The notes under the pieces: model-generated
Told to the model about the DNA's origin: nothing
The model's input: the letters and a program-made list of their open reading frames with translations, nothing else
The model's database searches: none
Source: Aggregatilinea lenta
GTDB taxonomy: Bacteria; Chloroflexota; Anaerolineae; Aggregatilineales; Aggregatilineaceae
DNA length: 64,000 nt
Reading direction: 5' to 3'
Assembly (NCBI RefSeq): GCF_003569045.1
Contig: NZ_BFCB01000001.1
Coordinates: 465,189 to 529,188, forward strand
Program-made: the position numbers and the translations under genes
Shown here: one piece after another, positions 6,362-54,494 of the stretch
Layout: every line of letters begins with the position of its first letter
Position numbering within the stretch: position 1 is the stretch's first letter

Positions 6362-7918
6362 GTGAATCGAATGGAATCTCCTTCCACTCTGGAATCCCCC
6401 GCCGATCTGTCTGTGCCGACTGCCGAGGCCGCCACGGAAAGCACCACGCGCCGCGCCGCGCGCAACGCGACCGCGATGGCCCTCTCGCAAATTTCCGCCA
6501 AGGGACTGCTGTTCATCTGGCAGCTTATGCTGGCGCGCTGGCTGGGGGACGAGGGCTACGGCGTGTACGGCACCATCGGCGCGCTGCTGGCCGTGGGCGC
6601 GGTCCTGCCGGACTTCGGCATGGGCATGATCGTCGTGCGCGACGTGGCGAACCATCCCAAAGACGCCAGCCGCTACCTGAGCGCGTCGCTCACCATGCAG
6701 CCGGTGCTGGCGGTGGTTGGCTACGGCGTGCTGATGATCGCGGCGATCCTTTTCGGCTACGATTCAGAACTGCGCGCGCTGCTGGCCCTGGCCGGGGTCA
6801 GCCTGCTGGTCGATACGCTGGGCAACATCTGCCACAACCAACTGCTCGCCGCGGAGCGTATGGTCATCCCGGCGGTCATCTCGACGGCGCACGTGGGCAT
6901 TCTGGTGGTGTTGGCCGCGATTGCGCTCGGCCTTGGGGGTGGGCTGTGGGGGTTGTATGTCGCCACCATCACCGCCGGGGTGGCGCGTACGAGCGCCTAC
7001 TGGATCGCCCTGACGCGCGTCGGCACGCGGCCCCAGTTCCCGCTGGATCGGGGCGTCGCGCGCAGCATGCTGATCAACGGCGCGCCGCTGGCGATGGCCG
7101 CGTTTCTTGCGCAGGCATATAACCACGCCGACAAGCTGATCACGACGGCGGTGCTCGGCGCGGAAGGCACAGGCCAGCTCACCGCCGGGTTCGTGATCGT
7201 GTTCGGGGTGGTCGAGATCCTCAGCACGACGGTGCTCGTCGCCGTGTTCCCGTTGATGTCGCGCACGTACAGCAGCGGGCAGCGCGCCATGTTCGAGTTC
7301 ATGCTCGAAAAGCTGGCGTTCTTCAACCTGACGCTGAGCCTGCCCCTGGCGATTTACACGTCGCTGCTGGCCGTGCCGCTGTCGGGCTGGCTGTTCGGCC
7401 CGGAATTCACGCGTACGGCGGACGTGCTGAAGATTTTGATCTGGTACACCGTCGTGAACATGGTCGGCAACGTGTTCGCCCAGGCGCTGCTCACCCAGAA
7501 CCGCCAGCGCCGCCTGCTCGTGATCCGCGCGTCGGGGCTGGCCTTGAACATCGCGCTGCTGGCGGTGCTGCTGCCACGGGTGGGCGTGCAGGGTGCGGCC
7601 ATCGCCACGTTGATCGCGGAAACGACTATTCTGACCGGGATTCTCACGTCGTTCGATTTCCCCGCCGACTGGTGGGGGCGGGCGCGCAGCCATCTGTGGC
7701 GGCTCGGCCTCGCGGCGGCGGGCCTGATGATCATCGTGCTGCTGCTGCGGCGGGTGCATCCGCTGCTGGCCGGGATCATCGGGCTGCCCACGTATGCGGC
7801 GCTGGTCCTGGTGAGCGGCGCAGTCGCCCGCGACGACTGGGATCTGATCTACCGGCTGGCGACCGCGATGCCGGGCGGCGCGGTCGTCGCGCGCTACTGG
7901 AAAAGGAAATTGGCCTAA
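6362..7918 (+). CDS. Polysaccharide/oligosaccharide flippase (Wzx-like, MOP superfamily)
   Basis: This is an integral membrane protein of about 518 residues with some 12 to 14 hydrophobic helices starting near residue 45. It has the flippase opening ATAMALSQISAKGLLFIWQ and the family's characteristic GYGVYGTIGALLAVGAVLPD segment. The role inferred from the family is to move lipid-linked sugar units to the outer face of the membrane. The start is GTG at 6362 or ATG at 6371; neither has a strong Shine-Dalgarno. The gene lies among glycosyltransferases and is followed four bases later by asnB, which fits one operon for an exported glycan. Confidence 0.9.
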   Translation: MNRMESPSTLESPADLSVPTAEAATESTTRRAARNATAMALSQISAKGLLFIWQLMLARWLGDEGYGVYGTIGALLAVGAVLPDFGMGMIVVRDVANHPKDASRYLSASLTMQPVLAVVGYGVLMIAAILFGYDSELRALLALAGVSLLVDTLGNICHNQLLAAERMVIPAVISTAHVGILVVLAAIALGLGGGLWGLYVATITAGVARTSAYWIALTRVGTRPQFPLDRGVARSMLINGAPLAMAAFLAQAYNHADKLITTAVLGAEGTGQLTAGFVIVFGVVEILSTTVLVAVFPLMSRTYSSGQRAMFEFMLEKLAFFNLTLSLPLAIYTSLLAVPLSGWLFGPEFTRTADVLKILIWYTVVNMVGNVFAQALLTQNRQRRLLVIRASGLALNIALLAVLLPRVGVQGAAIATLIAETTILTGILTSFDFPADWWGRARSHLWRLGLAAAGLMIIVLLLRRVHPLLAGIIGLPTYAALVLVSGAVARDDWDLIYRLATAMPGGAVVARYWKRKLA

Positions 7919-7922
7919 CCTT

Positions 7923-9941
7923 ATGTGCGGCATTGTGGGCATTCTCGACCAAACACACACGGGCCGCGCGGATCCCGCGCTGGTGCGCGCCATGACGCAG
8001 ACCATCGCGCATCGCGGGCCGGACGGCGACGGCTTCTTCCACTGGCCGGAGTCCGATCCGACCGTCGCGCTGGGGATGCGCCGCCTGAGCATCATCGACC
8101 TGGATACCGGCGACCAGCCGATCTTCAACGAAGACGGCTCGATTGCGATCGTGTTCAACGGCGAGATTTACAACTACCTTGAGCTGCGCGCCGACCTCGA
8201 AGCGCGCGGCCACGTCTTCCGCACCCAGACCGACACCGAGACGATCGTGCACCTGTATGAAGAACACGGCCTGGACCTGTTCGGCCACCTGCGCGGTATG
8301 TACGGCTTTGCGCTGTGGGACCGGAACGCCGGGCGGCTGGTGCTGGCCGTCGATCACATCGGGATCAAGCCGCTGTATCTGGCCGAGCGCGACGGGCTGC
8401 TGCTGTTCGCGTCGGAAGTCAAGGCCCTGTTCGCCGATCCGAGCCTGCCGCGCCGCCTCAACCTGGACGTGCTGGATACCTACCTGACGTTCGGCTACAT
8501 GATCGGTACGGAGACGATGTACGCGGGCATACGGCGGCTGCCGCCGGGCCACGCGCTGATCGCGGAAAACGGCGCGACGCGTTTGATCCGGCACTGGACG
8601 ACGGACTACCCGCCGGAGGACGAGCGCCCCACCGACGAGGCGGCTATCATCGAGGAGGCGCGCACGCGTCTGGCCGAGTCGGTCCGGCTGCACCTGCGCA
8701 GCGACGTGCCGCTGGGCCTGTTTTTGAGCGGCGGCATCGACTCCGCGGCCCTGCTGGCGCTCATGGCGCAGATGGAACCGGGGCGCATCAAGACGTTTTC
8801 GGTGGGCTACGACGTGGGGCGCGGCGCCGCCAATCCTGACGACGAAACGCTGCACGCGCGGCGCATCGCGGCGCACTTCGGCACGGATCACCACGAGCGC
8901 ATCATTACCGCCGACGACTGGTGGCGCTTCCTGCTGGCCTATGCGTATTATCACGACGAGCCGAACGCCAACCCGTCGATCGTGTCGCTGCAAGCGCTGG
9001 CCGAAGTCACCGCGCAGCACGTCAAAGTTGTGCTCAACGGCACCGGCGGCGACGAGCTGTTCTGCGGCTATCCGTCCCACCGCCGTTTTCCGTGGGTGAT
9101 CCGGAATTCCGCGCGCCTGGACCGTGTGGTGCCCAACGGCCTGCGCACCCGGTTGATCGGCGCGCCGTGGCGCTCGCTGGAGGCGCTGTATCCGACGCTG
9201 CGCCGGGTGCGGATCATCGGCGCGCTGCCCGCCTACCTGCCCACGTGGCACGCGCTGTTTTTGCCGTTGAGTGACGGTTTGCGGCGGTTGGCGTCGTTCG
9301 AGGGGCTGGTGTTCTCGGAGCCGATGCGCCAGCGGTTGTATGGGCCTGATCTGCGCGCGGCGTGGGCGGCGGCACAGCACAAAGAGCGGACATATGCCGA
9401 CATCCTGGCGCGCGCCTGGGCGGACGACCCCGGCGACACGGCTCAAGCGCTGGCGCTGCATACGTGGCTGCCGGGCAACGGCCTGCTGGCGGTGGACAAG
9501 GTGACGATGGCCCATTCGCTCGAAGCGCGCGTGCCGTTCTTCGACCCGCAGTTGATGGACTTCGCCATGCGCGTGCCGTCCGCGATCCGGCTGCGGAGCA
9601 ATAAGTACGTGCTGCGCGAAGCGATGCGCGATGACCTGCCGGACTTCGCGCGGCAGCGGCCCAAACAGCCGTTTGGCACGCCGATCCTGCGCTGGTTCGA
9701 TACCGACCTGAGCGAACGGATCCAGTCCGTGCTGCTGGACGAGCACAGCCTGAGCCGCGGGTTGTTCGAGCAGGCCGCGCTAGAGCGCCTGCTGCGGCAG
9801 CATTTCGGCGGGCAGACCGAGCAGGTCGAGGTGGTGTTCCGGCTGCTGCTGCTGGAACTGTGGCAGAGGGCTACGCTCGATGCGCCGCCGCACATTCCGG
9901 AGCCGTCGAGCGAGGCCGTTCGCATTGTGGAGCCGCTATGA
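7923..9941 (+). CDS. asnB: Asparagine synthase (glutamine-hydrolysing)
   Basis: This 672-residue class II glutamine amidotransferase would convert aspartate, ATP and glutamine to asparagine, or amidate a related carboxylate. The sequence opens MCGIVGILDQ, so Cys2 is the processed N-terminal nucleophile. Glutaminase motifs FNGEIYNYLELR and MYGFALWD follow. The synthetase domain starts near residue 240 with the pyrophosphate loop LSGGIDSAALLAL (about residue 268) and NGTGGDELFCGYP further on. AsnB homologues inside polysaccharide clusters are common and may modify sugar carboxylates rather than make free asparagine. Its TGA overlaps the ATG of a truncated glycosyltransferase copy, the relic of a once-coupled gene pair. 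Confidence 0.95.
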   Translation: MCGIVGILDQTHTGRADPALVRAMTQTIAHRGPDGDGFFHWPESDPTVALGMRRLSIIDLDTGDQPIFNEDGSIAIVFNGEIYNYLELRADLEARGHVFRTQTDTETIVHLYEEHGLDLFGHLRGMYGFALWDRNAGRLVLAVDHIGIKPLYLAERDGLLLFASEVKALFADPSLPRRLNLDVLDTYLTFGYMIGTETMYAGIRRLPPGHALIAENGATRLIRHWTTDYPPEDERPTDEAAIIEEARTRLAESVRLHLRSDVPLGLFLSGGIDSAALLALMAQMEPGRIKTFSVGYDVGRGAANPDDETLHARRIAAHFGTDHHERIITADDWWRFLLAYAYYHDEPNANPSIVSLQALAEVTAQHVKVVLNGTGGDELFCGYPSHRRFPWVIRNSARLDRVVPNGLRTRLIGAPWRSLEALYPTLRRVRIIGALPAYLPTWHALFLPLSDGLRRLASFEGLVFSEPMRQRLYGPDLRAAWAAAQHKERTYADILARAWADDPGDTAQALALHTWLPGNGLLAVDKVTMAHSLEARVPFFDPQLMDFAMRVPSAIRLRSNKYVLREAMRDDLPDFARQRPKQPFGTPILRWFDTDLSERIQSVLLDEHSLSRGLFEQAALERLLRQHFGGQTEQVEVVFRLLLLELWQRATLDAPPHIPEPSSEAVRIVEPL

Positions 9942-10147
9942 GAATTTTGTTCGTCGCCTCGCTGCACCATCCTGACGTGCTCGAAGAGGCCAGGCGCAAC
10001 GCCCCGCCCGGCGAAGCGGCTAGAGCCTGTTATGAACTTATAGCCCCCATCCCCAGGGGAAAAATGGGCGGGCTGCAAACCTGCTACTCCGGGTCTTGGG
10101 GTGATGAGCGAGGGAGGAACCAATTTCATCGCTCGAAAAGCGCATAA
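9938..10147 (+). pseudogene. Truncated copy of the 5' end of the CgeB-like glycosyltransferase
   Basis: The ATG overlaps the asnB stop as ATGA. The first 26 codons (MRILFVASLHHPDVLEEARR and so on, to about 10016) match the start of the intact gene at 11409 with only two base differences. After that the frame runs into a small transposon-like element and ends at 10147. It is a broken duplicate that marks where the original operon junction was disrupted. Confidence 0.85.
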
Positions 10148-10156
10148 CACACTCTA
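10021..10156. mobile_element. Small non-autonomous transposon-like element (MITE)
   Basis: Terminal inverted repeats: GAGCCTGTTATGAACTT at the left (from 10023) and, read from the other strand, GAGTGTGTTATGCGCTT at the right (from 10154); 13 of 17 positions agree. Both ends are bordered by TA within CTAG (10020-10023 and 10154-10157), as expected for a TA target duplication. The interior of about 100 bases codes for nothing obvious. The ends resemble those of IS5-type (IS427-like) elements; that family name is from memory and needs a search. Confidence 0.6.
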
Positions 10157-10223
10157 GCAAACGATTTTCCCTGCCAGTGCACGATGCAGTATCAGCATAC
10201 CGAGCCGAAGGGAGAATAAATGC

Positions 10224-11303
10224 ATGAAGAAACTCGCAGTTGTCGGATTTTTAGTGCTTGCGGCCCTGCTTGCAGGCCCGGCGACAATCTTTGCTCAAGC
10301 TCCATCACCTCGCCCCTTACCGGCAGATCTGTTATTTGTGGGGCGTTCAGCCATAACTCACGACAACAGATATTTTGATGGCGTGTTTGTTGTCGATGCA
10401 AACACTATGAGAGCAAGTAAAATCCTGGAGGCTCCCGAAGGAACGATTGATGGCGCGTTTTGGTCGCCTGATGGGCAATATATTGCCGTTATTCACGGTC
10501 GCGGCTCATTTGAGGGCATCTGCGTTTACCATCCTGATGGCGAGGAAGTACGGTGCTGGGAGTTGAATGACCTGGTGCCTTGGAGAGATTTTCTGTTCTG
10601 GGAAGATAGTCGGGTTGTAGTTATTACGAGCAGAGAATCCGGTTATGAGTTCGTGGAATTGGACGTTTCGACCGGTGATGTATCTCGATCTCCATTTGAC
10701 GTTGGCGAAGCTTTATCGCTAGTGCAATTGTCGCCAACAGGCGACTATCTAGCATATCAGACGGTTCTAACAGAATCGGACTCGTCAGTTATATTGGGCG
10801 ACAAGCTCTATATATACAATCGTGACCAAATGTCTAAAAAACTAGTCACTTCAACCAGCACTGGTCAGTGTTTTTCTTGGTCACCAGACGGCCAAAAACT
10901 GGCCGTACGCCAGTATGGTGATACATCATTCGCATTTTTTGATCTTGAGGGCGTCAAAATCGGTGAAATACACCCTCAGTTTGAGGGCAAAGACATTAGC
11001 GGGTGTCCGGTTGCCTGGTCTCACGATGGGACGCGCTTGGCCTTTAACAGTTTATACCGTGAGGATCCTCGGACTTTAGGGCTATTTGTGACTGACATCG
11101 ATGAGCAGAAGACTTATCTGCTTGTAGACAGCTTTTATACATCCGTGTCGATCACATGGTCCCCCGATGATTCGTGTATTGTGACTGACGAGGTGCATGG
11201 TGGAGGATGGGGACAGATCGTTGTTGCCTCCATGGATGGGTGGGAGAAGTGGTACCATGTAGAGTCAGGCCGTTTTTTGGGGCCATCGTGGCGACCGGGA
11301 TAA
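10224..11303 (+). CDS. Secreted TolB/WD40-like beta-propeller protein
   Basis: A 359-residue exported protein. It opens with a signal peptide (MKKLAVVGFLVLAALLAGPA, cleavage near TIFA-QA). The rest is made of TolB-like blades whose strand-end motif recurs as SPDGQYIAV, SPTGDYLAYQ, SPDGQKLAVR, SHDGTRLAFN and SPDDSCIV. Such propellers bind ligands or partner proteins outside the cell; no catalytic residues are visible. GGGAG lies nine bases before the ATG. The gene is much AT-richer than the flanking glycosyltransferase genes, with ATA and AGA codons. It lies between a copied gene fragment plus a MITE and the intact gene copy, so it looks like cargo inserted into the operon. Its role in the glycan pathway is doubtful. 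Confidence 0.8.
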   Translation: MKKLAVVGFLVLAALLAGPATIFAQAPSPRPLPADLLFVGRSAITHDNRYFDGVFVVDANTMRASKILEAPEGTIDGAFWSPDGQYIAVIHGRGSFEGICVYHPDGEEVRCWELNDLVPWRDFLFWEDSRVVVITSRESGYEFVELDVSTGDVSRSPFDVGEALSLVQLSPTGDYLAYQTVLTESDSSVILGDKLYIYNRDQMSKKLVTSTSTGQCFSWSPDGQKLAVRQYGDTSFAFFDLEGVKIGEIHPQFEGKDISGCPVAWSHDGTRLAFNSLYREDPRTLGLFVTDIDEQKTYLLVDSFYTSVSITWSPDDSCIVTDEVHGGGWGQIVVASMDGWEKWYHVESGRFLGPSWRPG

Positions 11304-11354
11304 GTTCATTAAGCGGTTGGGCGTGGGCAGGTAATTCTCCCTTGAATCCAGTCC

Positions 11355-11408
11355 AGGCCAAATGCTGAAAACTGACCACTGGCTACTGTCCGCTAAAAGG
11401 ATAACGCC
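11355..11408. repeat. Family E low-complexity tract
   Basis: Contains CTGAAAACTGACCACTGGC and related words, like the tracts at 18.2, 18.5, 23.5, 52.9 and 61.4 kb. It abuts the TTG start of the displaced glycosyltransferase. Confidence 0.55.
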
Positions 11409-12551
11409 TTGAGAATTTTGTTCGTCGCCTCGCTGCACCATCCCGACGTGCTCGAAGAGGCCAAGCGCAACGCCCCGCCCGGCGAAGATCCGCTCTTTCC
11501 GCCGTCGCAGGGGCAGTATTTTTGGGTGAAGGCCCTGCGCAAGCTCGGCCATACGTGCGGCGTCTTCTGGCGATCCGAGAGCGCGATGCCGTGGGCCAAA
11601 CAGCGCCAGCTTCACATGACGCAGCGCCTCACGCCGGGGCGGGCGGTCAGCGCGGTGATGGCGCGCGTGCCGACGCTCAACCCCGACTACCGCCTGCGCA
11701 ACCGGCATTTGCTGGACGAGGCCGCTGCCTTTCAGCCGGATGTGATCGTGCTGCCCGGCGACAACACGGTGATCCTGCCGGAGACGCTGGCCGAACTGAA
11801 GCGACAGCATAACGCGACGCTGGTCTACGGCTGCGGCACATCGCCCATCGTGTTTTCGCGCCCGGTCGAGCGCGCCGCCGCCCCGCTGATCGACCTCGTG
11901 ATCGCCAACGACTACTACCACGCGATCCAATGGCGCGAGCTGGGAGCGAAGCGGGTCGTCGCGCTGCCGATGTCGGCCATCGACCCGGCGTTTCACCATC
12001 CCTACGAGCTGACCGACCAGGAGCAGGCGGAGTACGGCTGCGACGTGAGCTTCGTGGGCACGCTCGTGCCGGACAACCTCTACGGCGAGCGGATCGCCGC
12101 GCTCGAAGCGCTGGCCGACTTTGACCTGGGCATTTGGAGCGTGCACGAGGTTCCCGCCTCGCTGAAGCGTTTCTATCGCGGCCCCGCGCTGGGCGAGCAA
12201 ATGCTGCGCGTGACGTGCGGCGGTAAAATCGCACTCAATCCACACGGCGACTTCATGCGCTACGGCGGCAACATGCGCCTGTTCGAGGCGTGCGGCGTGG
12301 GGGCGTTCCAGATCGTGGACGACCGTCCCGGCGTGCACGAGTGGTTCCGCGTGGGCGAGCACCTCGTCACGTACCGCGATCCCGCGCACCTGCACAAGCT
12401 GGTGGCCTATTACCTGAGCCATGAGAACGAGCGCGCGCAGATCGCGGCGGCGGGACAGGCGCACGTCCGCGAGCAGCACACGTACGACCAGCGCATGGCG
12501 CGACTGGTCGAGCTGATCAACGAGATTCGAGCATCAGGCAGCAAACGGTAG
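11409..12551 (+). CDS. CgeB-like glycosyltransferase
   Basis: A protein of about 380 residues resembling the glycosyltransferase family that includes spore maturation protein CgeB. It opens with an MRILFVASLHHPDV-type Rossmann strand, although the first codon here is TTG. The C-terminal part has the family's typical donor-domain ending: YGGNMRLFEACGVGAFQIVD, then GEHLVTYRDPAHL and EQHTYDQRMARLVELI. Its 5' end is duplicated at 9939-10016 directly after asnB, where an ATG overlaps the asnB stop. The original order was therefore asnB-ATGA-glycosyltransferase, and this copy now uses TTG because homology begins one base after the old A of ATG. It has lost its translational coupling and may be weakly translated. 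Confidence 0.88.
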   Translation: MRILFVASLHHPDVLEEAKRNAPPGEDPLFPPSQGQYFWVKALRKLGHTCGVFWRSESAMPWAKQRQLHMTQRLTPGRAVSAVMARVPTLNPDYRLRNRHLLDEAAAFQPDVIVLPGDNTVILPETLAELKRQHNATLVYGCGTSPIVFSRPVERAAAPLIDLVIANDYYHAIQWRELGAKRVVALPMSAIDPAFHHPYELTDQEQAEYGCDVSFVGTLVPDNLYGERIAALEALADFDLGIWSVHEVPASLKRFYRGPALGEQMLRVTCGGKIALNPHGDFMRYGGNMRLFEACGVGAFQIVDDRPGVHEWFRVGEHLVTYRDPAHLHKLVAYYLSHENERAQIAAAGQAHVREQHTYDQRMARLVELINEIRASGSKR

Positions 12552-12558
12552 GGTATCC

Positions 12559-13326
12559 ATGAGCGATCTATACGACAGCACCCGCGAGTCGTGGGAAGAT
12601 ATCTGGCAGGATGCCAGCGTCGAGTTCGAGCTGCAAGCCATCGAGCAGCCGCGCGCCTATGAAACGCTCGGCGTGTACACCGGCTACCTCGACAAAGAAG
12701 GCATCATTCTGGAGGCGGGCAGCGGTCTGGGTGCGGTGCTGTTCAAGCTACGCACGCTGGGCTTCAACGTGATCGGGCTGGACTACGCCGAAAACGCGCT
12801 GCACACCGTGCACGACTACGATCCGACCATGCGCATGCAGGTCGGGGACGTGCACGCGCTGCCCTACCGCGACAACTCGCTGCACGGCTACCTGTCGTTC
12901 GGCGTGCTGGAACATTTCCAGCAGGGCGTGCTGCCCGCGCTGCTAGAAGCCAACCGCGTGCTGGCTCCCGGCGGCACGCTGGTGCTGACCATCCCCTATC
13001 CCAACGTGGTGTATAAGCTGGTCCAGCTCAAGCGGCGGCTGTTGAAGCGCGGCGCGCTCACCGACGAGGAATTTTTCGAGAGCACCTATACCCAGCACCA
13101 GCTCGTTGCGGCGCTGCAAGAGGCGGGCTTCGAGGTGGCGCTGGTCCGCCCGACCAGCCACAGCTACACGCTGCGCGGCTTCGGTTGGCCGTTCAAGGCG
13201 AAGGGCTATTACCGCACGACGTGGCTGGCCGATAAGCTCGGCGCGGTGCTGCGCGTGGTCGCGCCGTGGCCGTTCAACTTCACGACCATGCTCGTTGCGC
13301 GCAAAGCGCGCCACGTCGGGCGCTGA
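12559..13326 (+). CDS. Class I SAM-dependent methyltransferase
   Basis: A 255-residue Rossmann methyltransferase. SAM-binding motif I reads ILEAGSGLGAVLFKL (about residues 51-65), the acidic end of strand 2 is VIGLDYAENAL, and motif II is VGDVHALPYRDNSL. The later GVLEHFQQG and LAPGGTLVLTIPYPN blocks are typical of Methyltransf_11/23 members. The substrate is probably a sugar or lipid-linked intermediate, judging only from its place seven bases after a glycosyltransferase and before a membrane-bound GT39 enzyme. ATG at 12559 is the natural start. Confidence 0.9.
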   Translation: MSDLYDSTRESWEDIWQDASVEFELQAIEQPRAYETLGVYTGYLDKEGIILEAGSGLGAVLFKLRTLGFNVIGLDYAENALHTVHDYDPTMRMQVGDVHALPYRDNSLHGYLSFGVLEHFQQGVLPALLEANRVLAPGGTLVLTIPYPNVVYKLVQLKRRLLKRGALTDEEFFESTYTQHQLVAALQEAGFEVALVRPTSHSYTLRGFGWPFKAKGYYRTTWLADKLGAVLRVVAPWPFNFTTMLVARKARHVGR

Positions 13327-13337
13327 TTCACAGCCGC

Positions 13338-14615
13338 ATGGTTAAGCACCCCGCCCGCACTCTGCTGCTCGTGTTCCTCGCCGCGCTGGCCGTGCGTCTG
13401 GTCTTCGTCGGCGCGCGCTATACGGACGACCTCAGCGCCTTCCAGACCGGCGACTACACGCTGTACTGGATCGGCGCGGATCACATCCTGTCGCAGGGGG
13501 ATCTGAGCAACAGCCTGTTTTTGCTGCGCCCGCCGCTGTTCGCCGCCGTGATCGCGGTGCTGGACCTGGACAACCTCGCGGTGCTGCTGTGCAACGTCGT
13601 ACTGGGGGCGCTGCTGGCGCCGCTCAGCGTGATCCTGGCGCGCCAGCTGACCCTCGGCAGCCGCGCCGCGCTGGTCGTCGGGCTGATCGTCGCGCTCGAT
13701 CCGGCCAGTGTCGTATATTCGGCCTTCCTGGGGCCGGAGCCGTTGGCGAACCTGACGTTTCTGGGCATGCCGATTATGCTGCTGCACGCCGTCCTGGTCT
13801 GCCGGGGCGGGCGCGCGCTGCTGTGGGGCAGCGTCGCGGGGCTGCTGCTGGCCCTGTCCACGCTGACCCGTCCCGCGCCGTACCTCGTCTGGATTCCGCT
13901 GGCGCTGTGGCTGCTGGTCTTTTACCGGGCGCAGTGGCGTACCGTGACCGTGTACGTGCTGGTCGGGCTGATCGGGATCGGCGCGTGGGTCGCGCACAAC
14001 GCGCGCGTGTTCGACAACCCCACCGTGTCGAGTGTCGGCGCGTACAGCATGCTCTACTACCGCGCTGCTTCGGTCGAGCACTGGGGCGCGGATCACGATA
14101 TGGACACGGTCTACACCGATCTCGCCCGCCGCGTCGAGGCACGGCTGGGGCACGACACGTCGCAGGTCAGCACCATGACCCGCCACTCGCACTACAGCGG
14201 GCCAGATACGCTGACGAACGCCATGACCGCCACCGCCCTGGACACGTTCCAGCGCTACCCCGCTGCGTACATCGCCACGCTGCCAGTCGGGCTGGCGCGC
14301 ATGTACGGCTATACCAGCGCGCTGCCGCGCTGGACGCGCGTGCTCGAAGTGCCCTGGAACCTCGCCCTGACGCTGGGCGCGCTGGCGGGCGTTGTCATCG
14401 CCGCGCGACGCCGCGCGTGGCTGCTGGCGATCGGGACCGCGCTGCCCGTGCTGTACTACACGGCGGGCACGCTGTTCGTGCAGACGTCCGGCATGGATAC
14501 GCGTATGCGCACGATGCTCACGCCGTTTCTGGCCGTGGGGCTGGTGGTTGCGGCGGGCTGGGTCGCGGCGTGGCGGTCGGGTCAGAGTGAGGATCGGGAC
14601 GTGCCGGCAGGGTAA
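13338..14615 (+). CDS. GT39-like membrane glycosyltransferase (GT-C fold)
   Basis: A polytopic membrane protein of about 425 residues. The first helix is LLLVFLAALAVRLVFV, and roughly 9 to 11 hydrophobic segments follow. Between the first two helices is the acidic loop RYTDDLSAFQTGDYTLYW, which fits the catalytic Asp loop of dolichol- or polyprenyl-phosphate-mannose-dependent GT-C enzymes. A second conserved-looking stretch is LRPPLFAAVIAVL. It would transfer sugars outside the cytoplasmic membrane from a polyprenyl-phosphate donor. ATG at 13338 lies 11 bases after the methyltransferase stop, which supports one operon. Confidence 0.82.
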   Translation: MVKHPARTLLLVFLAALAVRLVFVGARYTDDLSAFQTGDYTLYWIGADHILSQGDLSNSLFLLRPPLFAAVIAVLDLDNLAVLLCNVVLGALLAPLSVILARQLTLGSRAALVVGLIVALDPASVVYSAFLGPEPLANLTFLGMPIMLLHAVLVCRGGRALLWGSVAGLLLALSTLTRPAPYLVWIPLALWLLVFYRAQWRTVTVYVLVGLIGIGAWVAHNARVFDNPTVSSVGAYSMLYYRAASVEHWGADHDMDTVYTDLARRVEARLGHDTSQVSTMTRHSHYSGPDTLTNAMTATALDTFQRYPAAYIATLPVGLARMYGYTSALPRWTRVLEVPWNLALTLGALAGVVIAARRRAWLLAIGTALPVLYYTAGTLFVQTSGMDTRMRTMLTPFLAVGLVVAAGWVAAWRSGQSEDRDVPAG

Positions 14616-18192: not shown

Positions 18193-18541
18193 AGAGCAGT
18201 TTTAGGTTGTTAGTCGTTAGTTGTTGGTTAAGGCGAGATCGCGGGTTGGGGTGAGAAGAGTGCGTGCCCCATACGTAGCAAGTTAACGGGCGTCAATATG
18301 TGCCTACGAGACCATTTTCTGTGAGTTGCCAGAGTTGATGGCCGTAGGGGTAGAGCTTGCTCTACCCGTTTTTCCCTTGACGGGCGATGCTTGCATCGCC
18401 CCTACGAAGAGCAGAATGTGCTTAACCTGGTGCACATGGGTGAGGTTGCGCACGCCCCAGCTTTTGCTTTTGGCCTTTACTACCGACTAGAAACTTTCAA
18501 CTAACAACTGCTCCTTGGTCCCACTTGGCCCTATACATGGT
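18193..18541. other. Repeat-rich intergenic region
   Basis: No gene is visible. It holds two family E tracts (about 18203-18250 and 18461-18510) and a compound family C repeat (18343-18405). Confidence 0.75.
18343..18405. repeat. Compound family C repeat, terminator-like
   Basis: GGTAGAGC TT GCTCTACC forms a perfect hairpin followed by CGTTTTT; a second hairpin GGGCGATGC TT GCATCGCCC follows. The copy lies after the last glycosyltransferase gene and could end its transcript. Confidence 0.7.
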
Positions 18542-20098: not shown

Positions 20099-21793
20099 AT
20101 GTTCCGCATTTCCCGGCTGGTTCTGTGTGTGATGGTCGCGCTGATGGTCTTTCCTTCGGCGGCGCTGGCGCAGGGCACGCCTCCGGCAGACGACGATCTG
20201 CAAGCCGTCGCGCAGGCTGTGGTCGACAACATGATCGCAGGCGATTTCGAGGCCGCTGCCGCCGACTTTAACGACGCGATGCTGGCTGCGCTGCCTGCCG
20301 ACAAACTCAGCCAAACCTGGGACACGCTGCTGGCACAGGTCGGCGCGTTCGTGTCCCTGGACGACGAGGTCACGTCGCAGGTGCAGGACGACCTGACGAC
20401 TTACTTCTTCATCCTGCGCTTCGAAAAGCTGGCGCTTCAGACGTCGGTCACCGTCGATGCGGACGGGCAGGTCGTCGGGCTGTACTTCGCGCCCGCGCCG
20501 GAAACGCCCTTTGCCGAGGATCCGAACGCGGCCATCGCGCAGGCGCTGATCGACAATATGATTGCGGGGGATTTCGAGGCGGCCACGGCGGACTTCAACG
20601 ACGCGATGCTAGCTGCACTGCCCGCCGACACGCTGCAACAGACCTGGAACACGCTTCCGGCGCAGGTCGGCGCGTTCCAGTCCGTAGACGAGCAGGTTAC
20701 ATCCGAGTCGCGGGGCGACCAGACGACCTATTTCTTCGTGCTGCGGTTCGAGCAGATGGCGCTTCAGGCACAGGTCACCGTCAGCGCGGAGGGACAGGTC
20801 GCGGGGCTGTACTTCAGCCCACTCGAATCCGAACAGGCGGCAGCACCCGCTTACGAGCCGCCTGCGTACGCTGACGAGGCCGCCTTCACCGAGCAGGATA
20901 TCACGCTCAATCCCGGGACCGAGTGGGAACTGCCCGGCACGCTGACGCTGCCTGTGGGCGATGGCCCGTTCCCGGTCGTCGTGCTGGTGCACGGCTCCGG
21001 CCCCAACGATCGTGACGAGACGGTTGGCTCCAATAAGCCGTTCAAGGATCTGGCCTGGGGGCTGGCGTCGCAGGGCATCGCCGTGCTGCGCTACGACAAG
21101 CGCACCAACGTCTATGGTGCGCAGGTGGCCGCGCTGCCCGATTTCACCGTCGGCGAAGAGACAGTTGACGACGCCGTGGCCGCTGTCGAGCTGCTGCGCG
21201 ACACCGAGGGCATCGATCCGGGCCGGATCTACGTGCTCGGGCACAGCCAGGGCGGCTATCTCGCGCCGCGCATCGCGGTGCAGGCCGGGGATCTGGCCGG
21301 GGTGATCGTCATGGCGGGCAACACGCGTTCCCTACCCGATTTGATCATCGAGCAAACCGAGTATCTGCTCACCATCGACGACGGCACGTTCTCCGACGAC
21401 GATCAGGCGTACCTGGACGAGACGATGGCGACGGTCGAGGCGACGAAAAACGCCCAGTCCGGCGACGATCCGACAACGCTGTTGTTCCACGCGCCGCCCG
21501 CCTACTGGATCGACCTGAACGCGTACGATCCACTGGCGACCGTGCAGGAGGTCGCCGCGCCGATCCTGGTTTTGCAAGGCGAGCGTGACTATCAGGTGAC
21601 GCTGGACGATCTGGCGGGCTGGCAGACGGCGCTGGAAGGCCGCGACGATGTGACGTTCAAGACTTACGCTGATCTCAATCACCTGTTCCTCAGCGGCGAG
21701 GGCGATCCCAACCCGACGGAATACCAGATGCCGGGGCACATTCCCCAAACAGTAATCGACGACATCGCCGGTTGGATTACGGCACACTCTTAG
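20099..21793 (+). CDS. Secreted alpha/beta hydrolase with two DUF3887-like repeats
   Basis: A 564-residue exported protein. A signal peptide ([20 protein letters not shown]) leads into two repeats of about 100 residues (roughly 30-130 and 140-240). Both contain [11 protein letters not shown] and [14 protein letters not shown] and resemble DUF3887, a domain often placed before hydrolases. The C-terminal 300 residues are an alpha/beta hydrolase: oxyanion loop [15 protein letters not shown], nucleophile elbow VLGHSQGGY, late Asp in [10 protein letters not shown] and the catalytic His in [15 protein letters not shown] lies nine bases before the ATG. It sits between the PdxR-like gene and pdxS. 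A link to B6 metabolism is not shown; the substrate may be an ester or peptide outside the membrane. Confidence 0.87.
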
Positions 21794-34086: not shown

Positions 34087-34105
34087 AAGCACGATCGCGC
34101 GATCC

Positions 34106-34137
34106 GTAGGGGCGGGGCTTGCTCCGCCCGGTTTTTA
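34106..34137. repeat. Family C repeat, terminator-like
   Basis: GGGGCGGGGCTTGCTCCGCCC then GGTTTTTATCC: a GGCGGGGC/GCTCCGCC stem and a T run. It lies after the MaoC gene and before the promoter of the PBP gene. Confidence 0.75.
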
Positions 34138-42686: not shown

Positions 42687-42720
42687 CCGCATATCGGAAA
42701 CAAACGACATGTCGGGTTTC

Positions 42721-42784
42721 GTAGGGGTAGGGCTTGCCCTACCCGGTTTTTCTCCCCACGGGTGGAGCAAGCTCCGCTCCTACG
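42721..42784. repeat. Double family C repeat, terminator-like
   Basis: GGGTAGGGC TT GCCCTACCC is a perfect 9-base hairpin followed by GGTTTTT, 35 bases after the acetyltransferase stop. A second, reversed half copy GGTGGAGCAAGCTCC follows. Confidence 0.8.
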
Positions 42785-54415: not shown

Positions 54416-54429
54416 CAGCGCAGGTTTTC

Positions 54430-54494
54430 GTAGGGGTAGGGCTTGCCCTACCCGGTTTTTGGGCGCAATGGGCGGAGCAAGCCCCGCCCCTACG
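54430..54494. repeat. Double family C repeat, terminator-like
   Basis: GGGTAGGGC TT GCCCTACCC then GGTTTTTGGG, 15 bases after the MBOAT stop, and a reversed half copy GGGCGGAGCAAGCCCCGCCC. Nearly identical to the copy at 42721. Confidence 0.8.

What the first reader, a model, noticed from the sequence alone, without database searches (positions are those of the whole stretch)
9938..11411. Operon junction broken by a gene insertion that left a partial duplicate of the downstream gene start
The first 78 bases of the CgeB-like glycosyltransferase occur twice, at 9939-10016 and 11410-11487, with two differences. The first copy keeps the ATGA overlap with asnB; the second begins with TTG. Between them lie a MITE-like element, an AT-rich secreted beta-propeller gene and a repeat tract. 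A 78-base duplication is far longer than a normal transposon target duplication, so a replication slip, recombination or an unusual element may be responsible. The intact gene seems to have lost its ATG and its coupling.
Basis: partly seen in the sequence, partly recalled or inferred. Interest (0 to 1): 0.7.

Follow-up and report, generated by a model that had tools for sequence, protein, structure and literature searches.

The report
One-off insertion splitting a sugar-gene operon
A stray gene was pasted between two sugar-coat genes in this bacterium, leaving behind a broken copy of the start of the second gene; it looks like a rare accident of DNA recombination of a kind already described elsewhere, not a new mobile element.

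Summary
A 78-base direct repeat (76 of 78 identical) lies at 9939-10016 and 11410-11487. Between the copies are a 132-bp MITE, a PD40/beta-propeller gene and a short intergenic tract. In the same family, 3 of 12 readable loci keep an uninterrupted asnB-ATGA-glycosyltransferase junction, and the inserted gene was found in none of 29 loci fetched from other genomes. The MITE is a separate TA-target insertion and did not cause the duplication. The repeat starts exactly at the start codon, and the DNA before the second copy is a native-type leader with AAGGA 7 nt before TTG. This fits a donor fragment carrying propeller-leader-glycosyltransferase that joined by homology in the gene start on one side and by an illegitimate joint at base 78 on the other; single crossover of a recircularised fragment gave such products in E. 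coli (PMC3240628). [quoted passage not shown] pylori) by break and fill-in; the two cannot be separated without a closer strain, and no donor was seen. No similar repeat pair was found in 800 kb (13%) sampled from the genome. Ordinary genome evolution, cleanly preserved; low interest.

The parts
7923..9941 (+). asnB-like gene (asparagine synthase family), 672 aa, upstream partner of the broken junction
   Evidence: ORF; PF00733 E 1.1e-83, PF13537 E 2.9e-45; 74-78% identical gene directly before the glycosyltransferase in L012, L014, L018
9939..10016 (+). repeat copy 1: truncated 5' end of the glycosyltransferase gene, still in ATGA overlap with asnB (ATG at 9938)
   Evidence: 76 of 78 identical to copy 2
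9938..10147 (+). 69-codon chimeric frame: remnant of the glycosyltransferase start running into the MITE; probably without function (inferred)
   Evidence: in frame inside the 9860-10147 ORF; no Pfam match above cut-off
10023..10154 (.). MITE, 132 bp, ends GAGCCTGTTATG / CATAACACACTC, TA at 10021-10022 and 10155-10156; separate insertion
   Evidence: related elements elsewhere in the genome; coordinates
10224..11303 (+). inserted gene: 359-aa protein with a signal-peptide-like start (by eye) and PD40 beta-propeller repeats, 49% G+C
   Evidence: ORF; PF07676 E 2.2e-11; G+C
11304..11408 (+). leader-like tract before the intact gene; motif CTGACCACTGGCTACTG at 11372-11388, AAGGA at 11397-11401, 7 nt before TTG
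   Evidence: motif 15 times in the genome with up to 2 mismatches, 3 for the reversed control; similar leader 18 nt before a biotin carboxylase gene in L117
11410..11487 (+). repeat copy 2: 5' end of the intact glycosyltransferase gene
11409..12551 (+). intact CgeB-like glycosyltransferase, 380 aa, TTG start (start inferred)
   Evidence: ORF; PF13524 E 4.9e-29; up to 78% identical relatives, aligned from residue 1
12559..13326 (+). methyltransferase gene, frequent downstream partner of the glycosyltransferase
   Evidence: PF08241 E 2.9e-15; found downstream in the fetched DNA of 10 of 25 oriented relative loci (in L027 about 770 bp away, and several loci end before it could be seen)

Best explanation
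A lineage-specific recombination accident split a conserved asnB-glycosyltransferase junction. The most likely course: a donor DNA fragment (from the same or a very close strain, or from a former arrangement of this genome) carried the beta-propeller gene, then a leader with a ribosome-binding site, then a glycosyltransferase gene starting with TTG. It paired with the resident gene within its first bases (homologous side) and was closed on the other side by an illegitimate joint after base 78 of the gene. A single crossover of a fragment circularised at that joint, or one-sided homologous plus one-sided illegitimate joining of a linear fragment, gives exactly the observed product: resident asnB-ATG-78 bases, joint, propeller, leader, TTG and a full gene. 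A MITE inserted at a TA near the joint as a separate event. The glycosyltransferase stays intact but is now started from its own leader instead of by coupling to asnB. Shown: the repeat, the ancestral-type junction in relatives, the MITE boundaries, the recurrence of the leader motif. Inferred: the donor, the circle, and translation from TTG.
For: Uninterrupted asnB-ATGA-glycosyltransferase in L012, L014, L018; the propeller gene in none of 29 loci from other genomes (not all hold full upstream DNA). The repeat starts at the start codon itself (ATG/TTG differ in base 1 only), which is where two gene copies with different upstream contexts would begin to agree. The DNA before copy 2 is of a native leader type: motif 15 times against 3 for the reversed control; in 5 of 9 other loci read it stands 11-164 nt before a same-strand gene (ArgRS, TIR protein, Hsp20, shikimate kinase, biotin carboxylase); the biotin carboxylase leader aligns with the tract up to the start codon (score 39; 500 letter shuffles mean 20.0, maximum 34). 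The upstream neighbour of this glycosyltransferase varies within the family: asnB 3, flippase-like 4, other 5 of 12, so other contexts exist. Precedent: in E. coli, the PCR diagnostic for a partial duplication of the homologous locus was positive in 56 of 60 clones, 14 sequenced clones had duplications of 109-950 bp, and the authors concluded single crossover of a circular molecule (PMC3240628, section 12 read). A ComEC-type protein is present.
Against: No donor with the propeller-leader-glycosyltransferase order was found, though no other species of the genus was among the genomes searched, so a close donor could not have been seen. 78 bp is short for RecA-dependent pairing (recalled) and below the 109-950 bp of the E. 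coli case. In 4 of 9 other loci the motif is not before a recognised gene start, and L117 was picked through the motif, so part of its alignment score is built in. The pattern of about one change on each copy fits this and the rivals alike. ComEC is widespread (10 of 14 control genomes) and proves no competence. Textbook homology-facilitated illegitimate recombination gave deletions in the E. coli study, so the linear variant is the weaker half of this explanation.
Confidence: 0.5

Rival explanations
1. Insertion with long target duplication: two staggered single-strand breaks 78 bp apart opened the site, an unrelated fragment was captured, and fill-in copied the 78 bp on both sides.
For: Would produce flanking direct repeats without an element-coded enzyme. 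The pattern has a name and a bacterial precedent, frequently with restriction-modification genes in H. pylori (PMC1643837 passages; PMC4978471 passages). About one change on each copy fits identity at birth.
Against: The repeat begins precisely at the start codon and a fitting leader with AAGGA abuts it, a coincidence under random breaks (inference). Ku, central to the known bacterial end-joining pathway (recalled), was not found; Ku-independent joining was not tested.
Confidence: 0.27
2. Two nearby glycosyltransferase copies once existed (asnB-copy 1 ... propeller-leader-copy 2), and a deletion removed the 3' part of copy 1 and what followed it.
For: Explains the start-codon boundary, the leader and the truncation by a simple deletion; two copies would be near-identical after a recent duplication.
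Against: No second long copy of the gene remains in the genome, and no family genome shows two full-length copies at E <= 1e-40 (the second match in G015 overlaps the first piece and completes one broken gene).
Confidence: 0.13
3. A mobile element with a site-specific recombinase whose ~78-bp attachment core was duplicated.
For: Attachment cores of such length exist (recalled, not checked).
Against: No recombinase among the insert's frames of >=50 aa given to Pfam; no second insert in the genome; no similar repeat pair in 800 kb sampled; no match to the propeller gene in the phage, plasmid or viral collections.
Confidence: 0.05
4. Assembly error or strain mixture.
For: Contamination estimate 4.66%; a repeat could mislead an assembler.
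Against: No N in the window; contig of 907 kb; the two copies differ; the insert carries a complete MITE and an intact gene. No reads were available.
Confidence: 0.05

Closest known systems
Insertion with long target duplication (Nobusato et al. 2000, H. pylori; known here only through passages in PMC1643837 and PMC4978471)
   Same: A gene lies between two long direct copies of host sequence, and a comparison genome has the uninterrupted site.
   Different: There frequently restriction-modification genes and two strains of one species; here a PD40 beta-propeller gene and only genus-level relatives. Here the repeat starts at a start codon behind a native-type leader.
Single crossover of a recircularised fragment, and homology-facilitated illegitimate recombination (PMC3240628, section 12 read and passages; PMC5361080, passages)
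   Same: Homology on one side and an illegitimate joint on the other; single crossover left a 109-950 bp partial duplication of the homologous gene.
   Different: Those are selected laboratory events in E. coli lacZ and a model for Vibrio; here the event is inferred from anatomy and the homology is 78 bp.
Transposed Arabidopsis genes with flanking repeats (PMC2869330, passages)
   Same: Genes that moved are flanked by direct repeats of host sequence (>30 bp in 18 of 126 transposed against 2 of 102 control genes), often also present at the orthologous target site.
   Different: A plant genome; the authors favour excision and reinsertion of circles through the repeats.
TA-target MITEs
   Same: Terminal inverted repeats (GAGNNTGTTATG), TA on both sides, several copies in the genome, no recognisable gene.
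   Different: The transposase family that moves them was not looked for.

Membership tests
Insertion with long target duplication | Long direct repeats of host sequence flank the insert | tested here: met
   78 bp, 76 identical
[quoted passage not shown]
   L012, L014, L018; these are other genera, not the same species
Insertion with long target duplication | Both copies derive from the one resident target rather than from a donor copy | tested here: inconclusive
   about one change on each copy fits both; the start-codon boundary and leader favour a donor copy
Single-crossover insertion of a circularised donor fragment | A donor locus carrying the insert joined to the homologous gene | tested here: inconclusive
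   none found in the own genome or 60 relatives, but no congeneric genome was available; kept as 'works like', not as membership
Single-crossover insertion of a circularised donor fragment | The left repeat boundary is where donor and resident upstream contexts diverge | tested here: met
   boundary at base 2 of the start codon, with little likeness further upstream
Transposon insertion causing the 78-bp repeat | Element ends abut the repeat and its target duplication equals the repeat | tested here: not met
   MITE ends lie inside the insert and carry a 2-bp TA duplication
TA-target MITE | Inverted ends, TA on both sides, several copies | tested here: met
   8 of 10 elements paired have TA on both sides; the search pattern contained TA (one mismatch allowed), so this count is partly built in
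Ku-dependent end joining | Ku gene in the genome | tested here: not met
   PF02735 not found in the own genome (98.38% complete; the control rang in B. subtilis)

The most novel reading that the evidence does not exclude
An undescribed cassette system in this lineage places leader-carrying genes into operon junctions by copying 70-90 bp of the downstream gene start, so that the downstream gene keeps its reading frame and gains its own leader.
Probability: 0.04. Interest if true: 0.6.

Novelty: new member of a known kind. Interest (0 to 1): 0.22.

Why it matters
It is a clean, still readable example of how a gene can enter a polysaccharide operon without a recognisable transposase or integrase, and of how translation coupling can be lost while the downstream gene stays intact behind a new leader. 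It adds a probable case from another lineage to a pattern that the papers seen here describe from H. pylori. The lineage may be Anaerolineae (two of the three weak hits are Anaerolineae records, the third is Kordiimonadaceae; no taxonomy was established). It does not change any general view.

Tried and rejected
Rejected: MITE-caused duplication (its TA duplication is intact and lies inside the insert). Rejected: simple tandem duplication of a larger unit holding the propeller (no second copy of the propeller in the genome; the other matches are 25-33% identical). Disfavoured: Ku-type end joining. Led nowhere: origin of the propeller gene (three 21-25% hits in genome contigs; in the other 60 genomes the best-scoring match is 30% identical at E 1.0e-12, with shorter, weaker matches up to 37%; none in plasmids, phages, viral contigs). 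RNA family, promoter or terminator in the junction: searches gave nothing beyond their controls. Placing the leader motif with a simple ORF caller picked wrong-strand frames in this GC-rich DNA and was dropped in favour.

Sixteen repeat pairs outside the window passed the filter (11 in the first 400 kb; 5 in the second). None was 40-200 bp with at least 95% identity. Eight of the 16 were read by eye: most look like dispersed intergenic hairpin or MITE-like repeats or coding repeats, one (L133) was not classified. The other eight were judged from length, spacing and identity only. Repeats that cross the edge of a 20-kb stretch were missed.

Literature: searches; passages read and one section. 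Nobusato et al. 2000 was seen only as cited in other papers.

Full report
What is there. The window lies in a 6.2-Mb genome of 5 contigs (G000:C1:465189-529188). An asnB-like gene (7923-9941) ends in an ATGA overlap with a frame that opens like a CgeB-type glycosyltransferase but departs from it after 78 bases. The same 78 bases open the intact glycosyltransferase at 11409-12551, 1471 bp downstream, with two differences. Allowing mismatches, the match extends five bases further upstream (83 nt, 95%). The DNA between (10017-11409) is 50% G+C against 65% for the window, and the beta-propeller gene is 49% G+C; 0.8% of 739 windows of the same length in a 400-kb sample of the genome are that low.

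Contents of the insert. A 132-bp MITE (10023-10154) carries inverted ends GAG..TGTTATG and TA on both sides. The pattern CTAGAGNNTGTTATG with up to one mismatch occurs 43 times in the genome against 5 for the reversed control. Of ten elements that could be paired in the fetched loci, eight show TA on both sides, although the search pattern itself contained TA. The MITE thus has its own 2-bp target duplication inside the insert and is not the cause of the 78-bp repeat. The gene at 10224-11303 encodes 359 aa with PD40 repeats (PF07676, E 2.2e-11) and a signal-peptide-like start (read by eye). It has no close relative in what was searched: other matches in its own genome are 25-33% identical; in the other 60 genomes the best-scoring match is 30% identical (E 1.0e-12), with weaker, shorter ones up to 37%; three genome-contig loci reach 21-25%; none in plasmids, phages or viral contigs. 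Seven further frames of 52-235 aa in or across the insert gave no Pfam match at E <= 0.01.

The junction in relatives. 44 of 61 genomes, own included, hold a match to the glycosyltransferase at E <= 0.001, and 14 of 18 family genomes, own included, at E <= 1e-40. One of the 13 other family genomes lacks the gene start on its contig (L017); the other 12 loci were read. The upstream neighbour is asnB in 3 (L012, L014, L018), a flippase-like gene in 4 (L007, L008, L015, L016; relatives of window 6362-7918, which matches PF13440 at E 3.9e-19) and something else in 5 (L009, L010, L011, L013, L107; L011 has only 136 nt upstream). All three asnB loci show the ATGA overlap, as do two flippase loci (L008, L015). 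All 12 start with ATG. None of the 29 loci from other genomes searched with the propeller protein encodes it, though not all hold full upstream DNA. So the uninterrupted junction exists, and the insert was seen in this genome only. No other species of the genus was among the genomes searched, so the event can be dated only as probably younger than the split from other genera. At the two differing sites the relatives favour the base of copy 2 at the first (C in 8, G in 3, T in 1 of 12) and of copy 1 at the second (G in 11, A in 1 of 12), that is about one change on each copy.

What the boundary says. The repeat begins at base 2 of the start codon: ATG in the coupled copy, TTG in the intact gene. 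Upstream of the TTG lies AAGGA with 7 nt spacing and, 20 nt before the TTG, the motif CTGACCACTGGCTACTG. That motif (two mismatches allowed) occurs 15 times in the genome against 3 for the reversed control. In 5 of the 9 other loci read it stands 11-164 nt before a gene on the same strand: ArgRS, TIR protein, Hsp20, shikimate kinase, biotin carboxylase; in the other 4 no recognised gene start follows. The biotin carboxylase leader aligns to the window's tract as far as the start codon (score 39; 500 letter shuffles of the tract gave a mean of 20.0 and a maximum of 34), but that locus was picked through the motif, so part of the score is built in. The right-hand end of the 'insert' therefore looks more like a natural leader of this lineage already joined to a gene start than like a random fragment end. 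This is an inference, not a proof.

Mechanism. The simplest reading is that copy 2 with its leader came as a unit from a donor arrangement propeller-leader-glycosyltransferase, and that copy 1 is what remains of the resident gene up to an illegitimate joint after base 78. A single crossover between the resident gene and a fragment circularised at that joint gives this product in one homologous step. In E. coli conjugation experiments, 56 of 60 Lac- clones were positive in the PCR diagnostic for a partial duplication of the homologous locus; 14 sequenced clones had duplications of 109-950 bp; the authors attributed them to single crossover of a circular molecule that had lost part of the homology, while 4 of 60 appeared to be homology-facilitated illegitimate recombination, with deletions (PMC3240628, section 12 read). 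The 78 bp here is shorter, and the donor has not been seen. The genome has a ComEC-type protein, as have 10 of 14 control genomes. [quoted passage not shown] pylori strains (Nobusato et al. 2000, known from passages in PMC1643837 and PMC4978471), if it arises by staggered breaks and fill-in. Ku was not found and the start-codon boundary would be a coincidence, but it cannot be excluded. A deletion between two neighbouring gene copies is also possible.

Is it a recurring system? In the window this pair alone passed a BLAST filter of >=40 bp, >=85% identity, <=8 kb spacing. In 800 kb sampled from three contigs, 16 pairs passed and none was 40-200 bp with >=95% identity. Eight were read by eye and do not resemble it. 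The insert shows no recombinase and no second copy in the genome. The sample is 13% of the genome, so rare further cases could have been missed.

Consequence. asnB-coupled translation would now run into a 69-codon chimeric frame ending in the MITE (9938-10147). The glycosyltransferase is intact, up to 78% identical to relatives from its first residue, and TTG is the start that preserves the N-terminus shared with them. That it is translated from TTG is inferred.

Verdict. Observation confirmed; interpretation partly supported. It is most likely a one-off recombination insertion of a known kind, with low interest.

Noticed in passing
window 10023-10154; L002-L004, L045, L049, L050, L056, L060, L062: A MITE family with ends GAGNNTGTTATG, mostly TA on both sides and about 130-270 bp long, is spread through the genome; its transposase was not looked for.
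   Followed up: partly
window 11372-11388; L109, L110, L111, L114, L117: A CTGACCACTGRCTACTG-type tract recurs before unrelated genes (ArgRS, TIR protein, Hsp20, shikimate kinase, biotin carboxylase); function unknown.
   Followed up: partly
L125:7721-7843 and 10359-10482; L098:13622-13740 and 13980-14096: A second MITE-like family of about 120 bp with ends close to GTGTACGGAAACC / GTATGGAAA in inverted order, present in several copies.
   Followed up: no
window 18337-18374, 34099-34136, 42714-42751, 54423-54460: Four copies of a 38-nt hairpin-like repeat (76-97% identical to the reference copy, which holds CGTAGGGGTAGGGCTTGCCCTACCCGGTTTTT).
   Followed up: no
window 20204-20815: A 285-bp segment repeated at 78% identity, 327 bp apart; it reads like a duplicated protein domain.
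   Followed up: no
family loci L007, L008, L012, L014, L015, L016, L018: The same glycosyltransferase follows either asnB or a flippase-like gene in different genera, with an ATGA overlap in 5 of these 7.
   Followed up: partly
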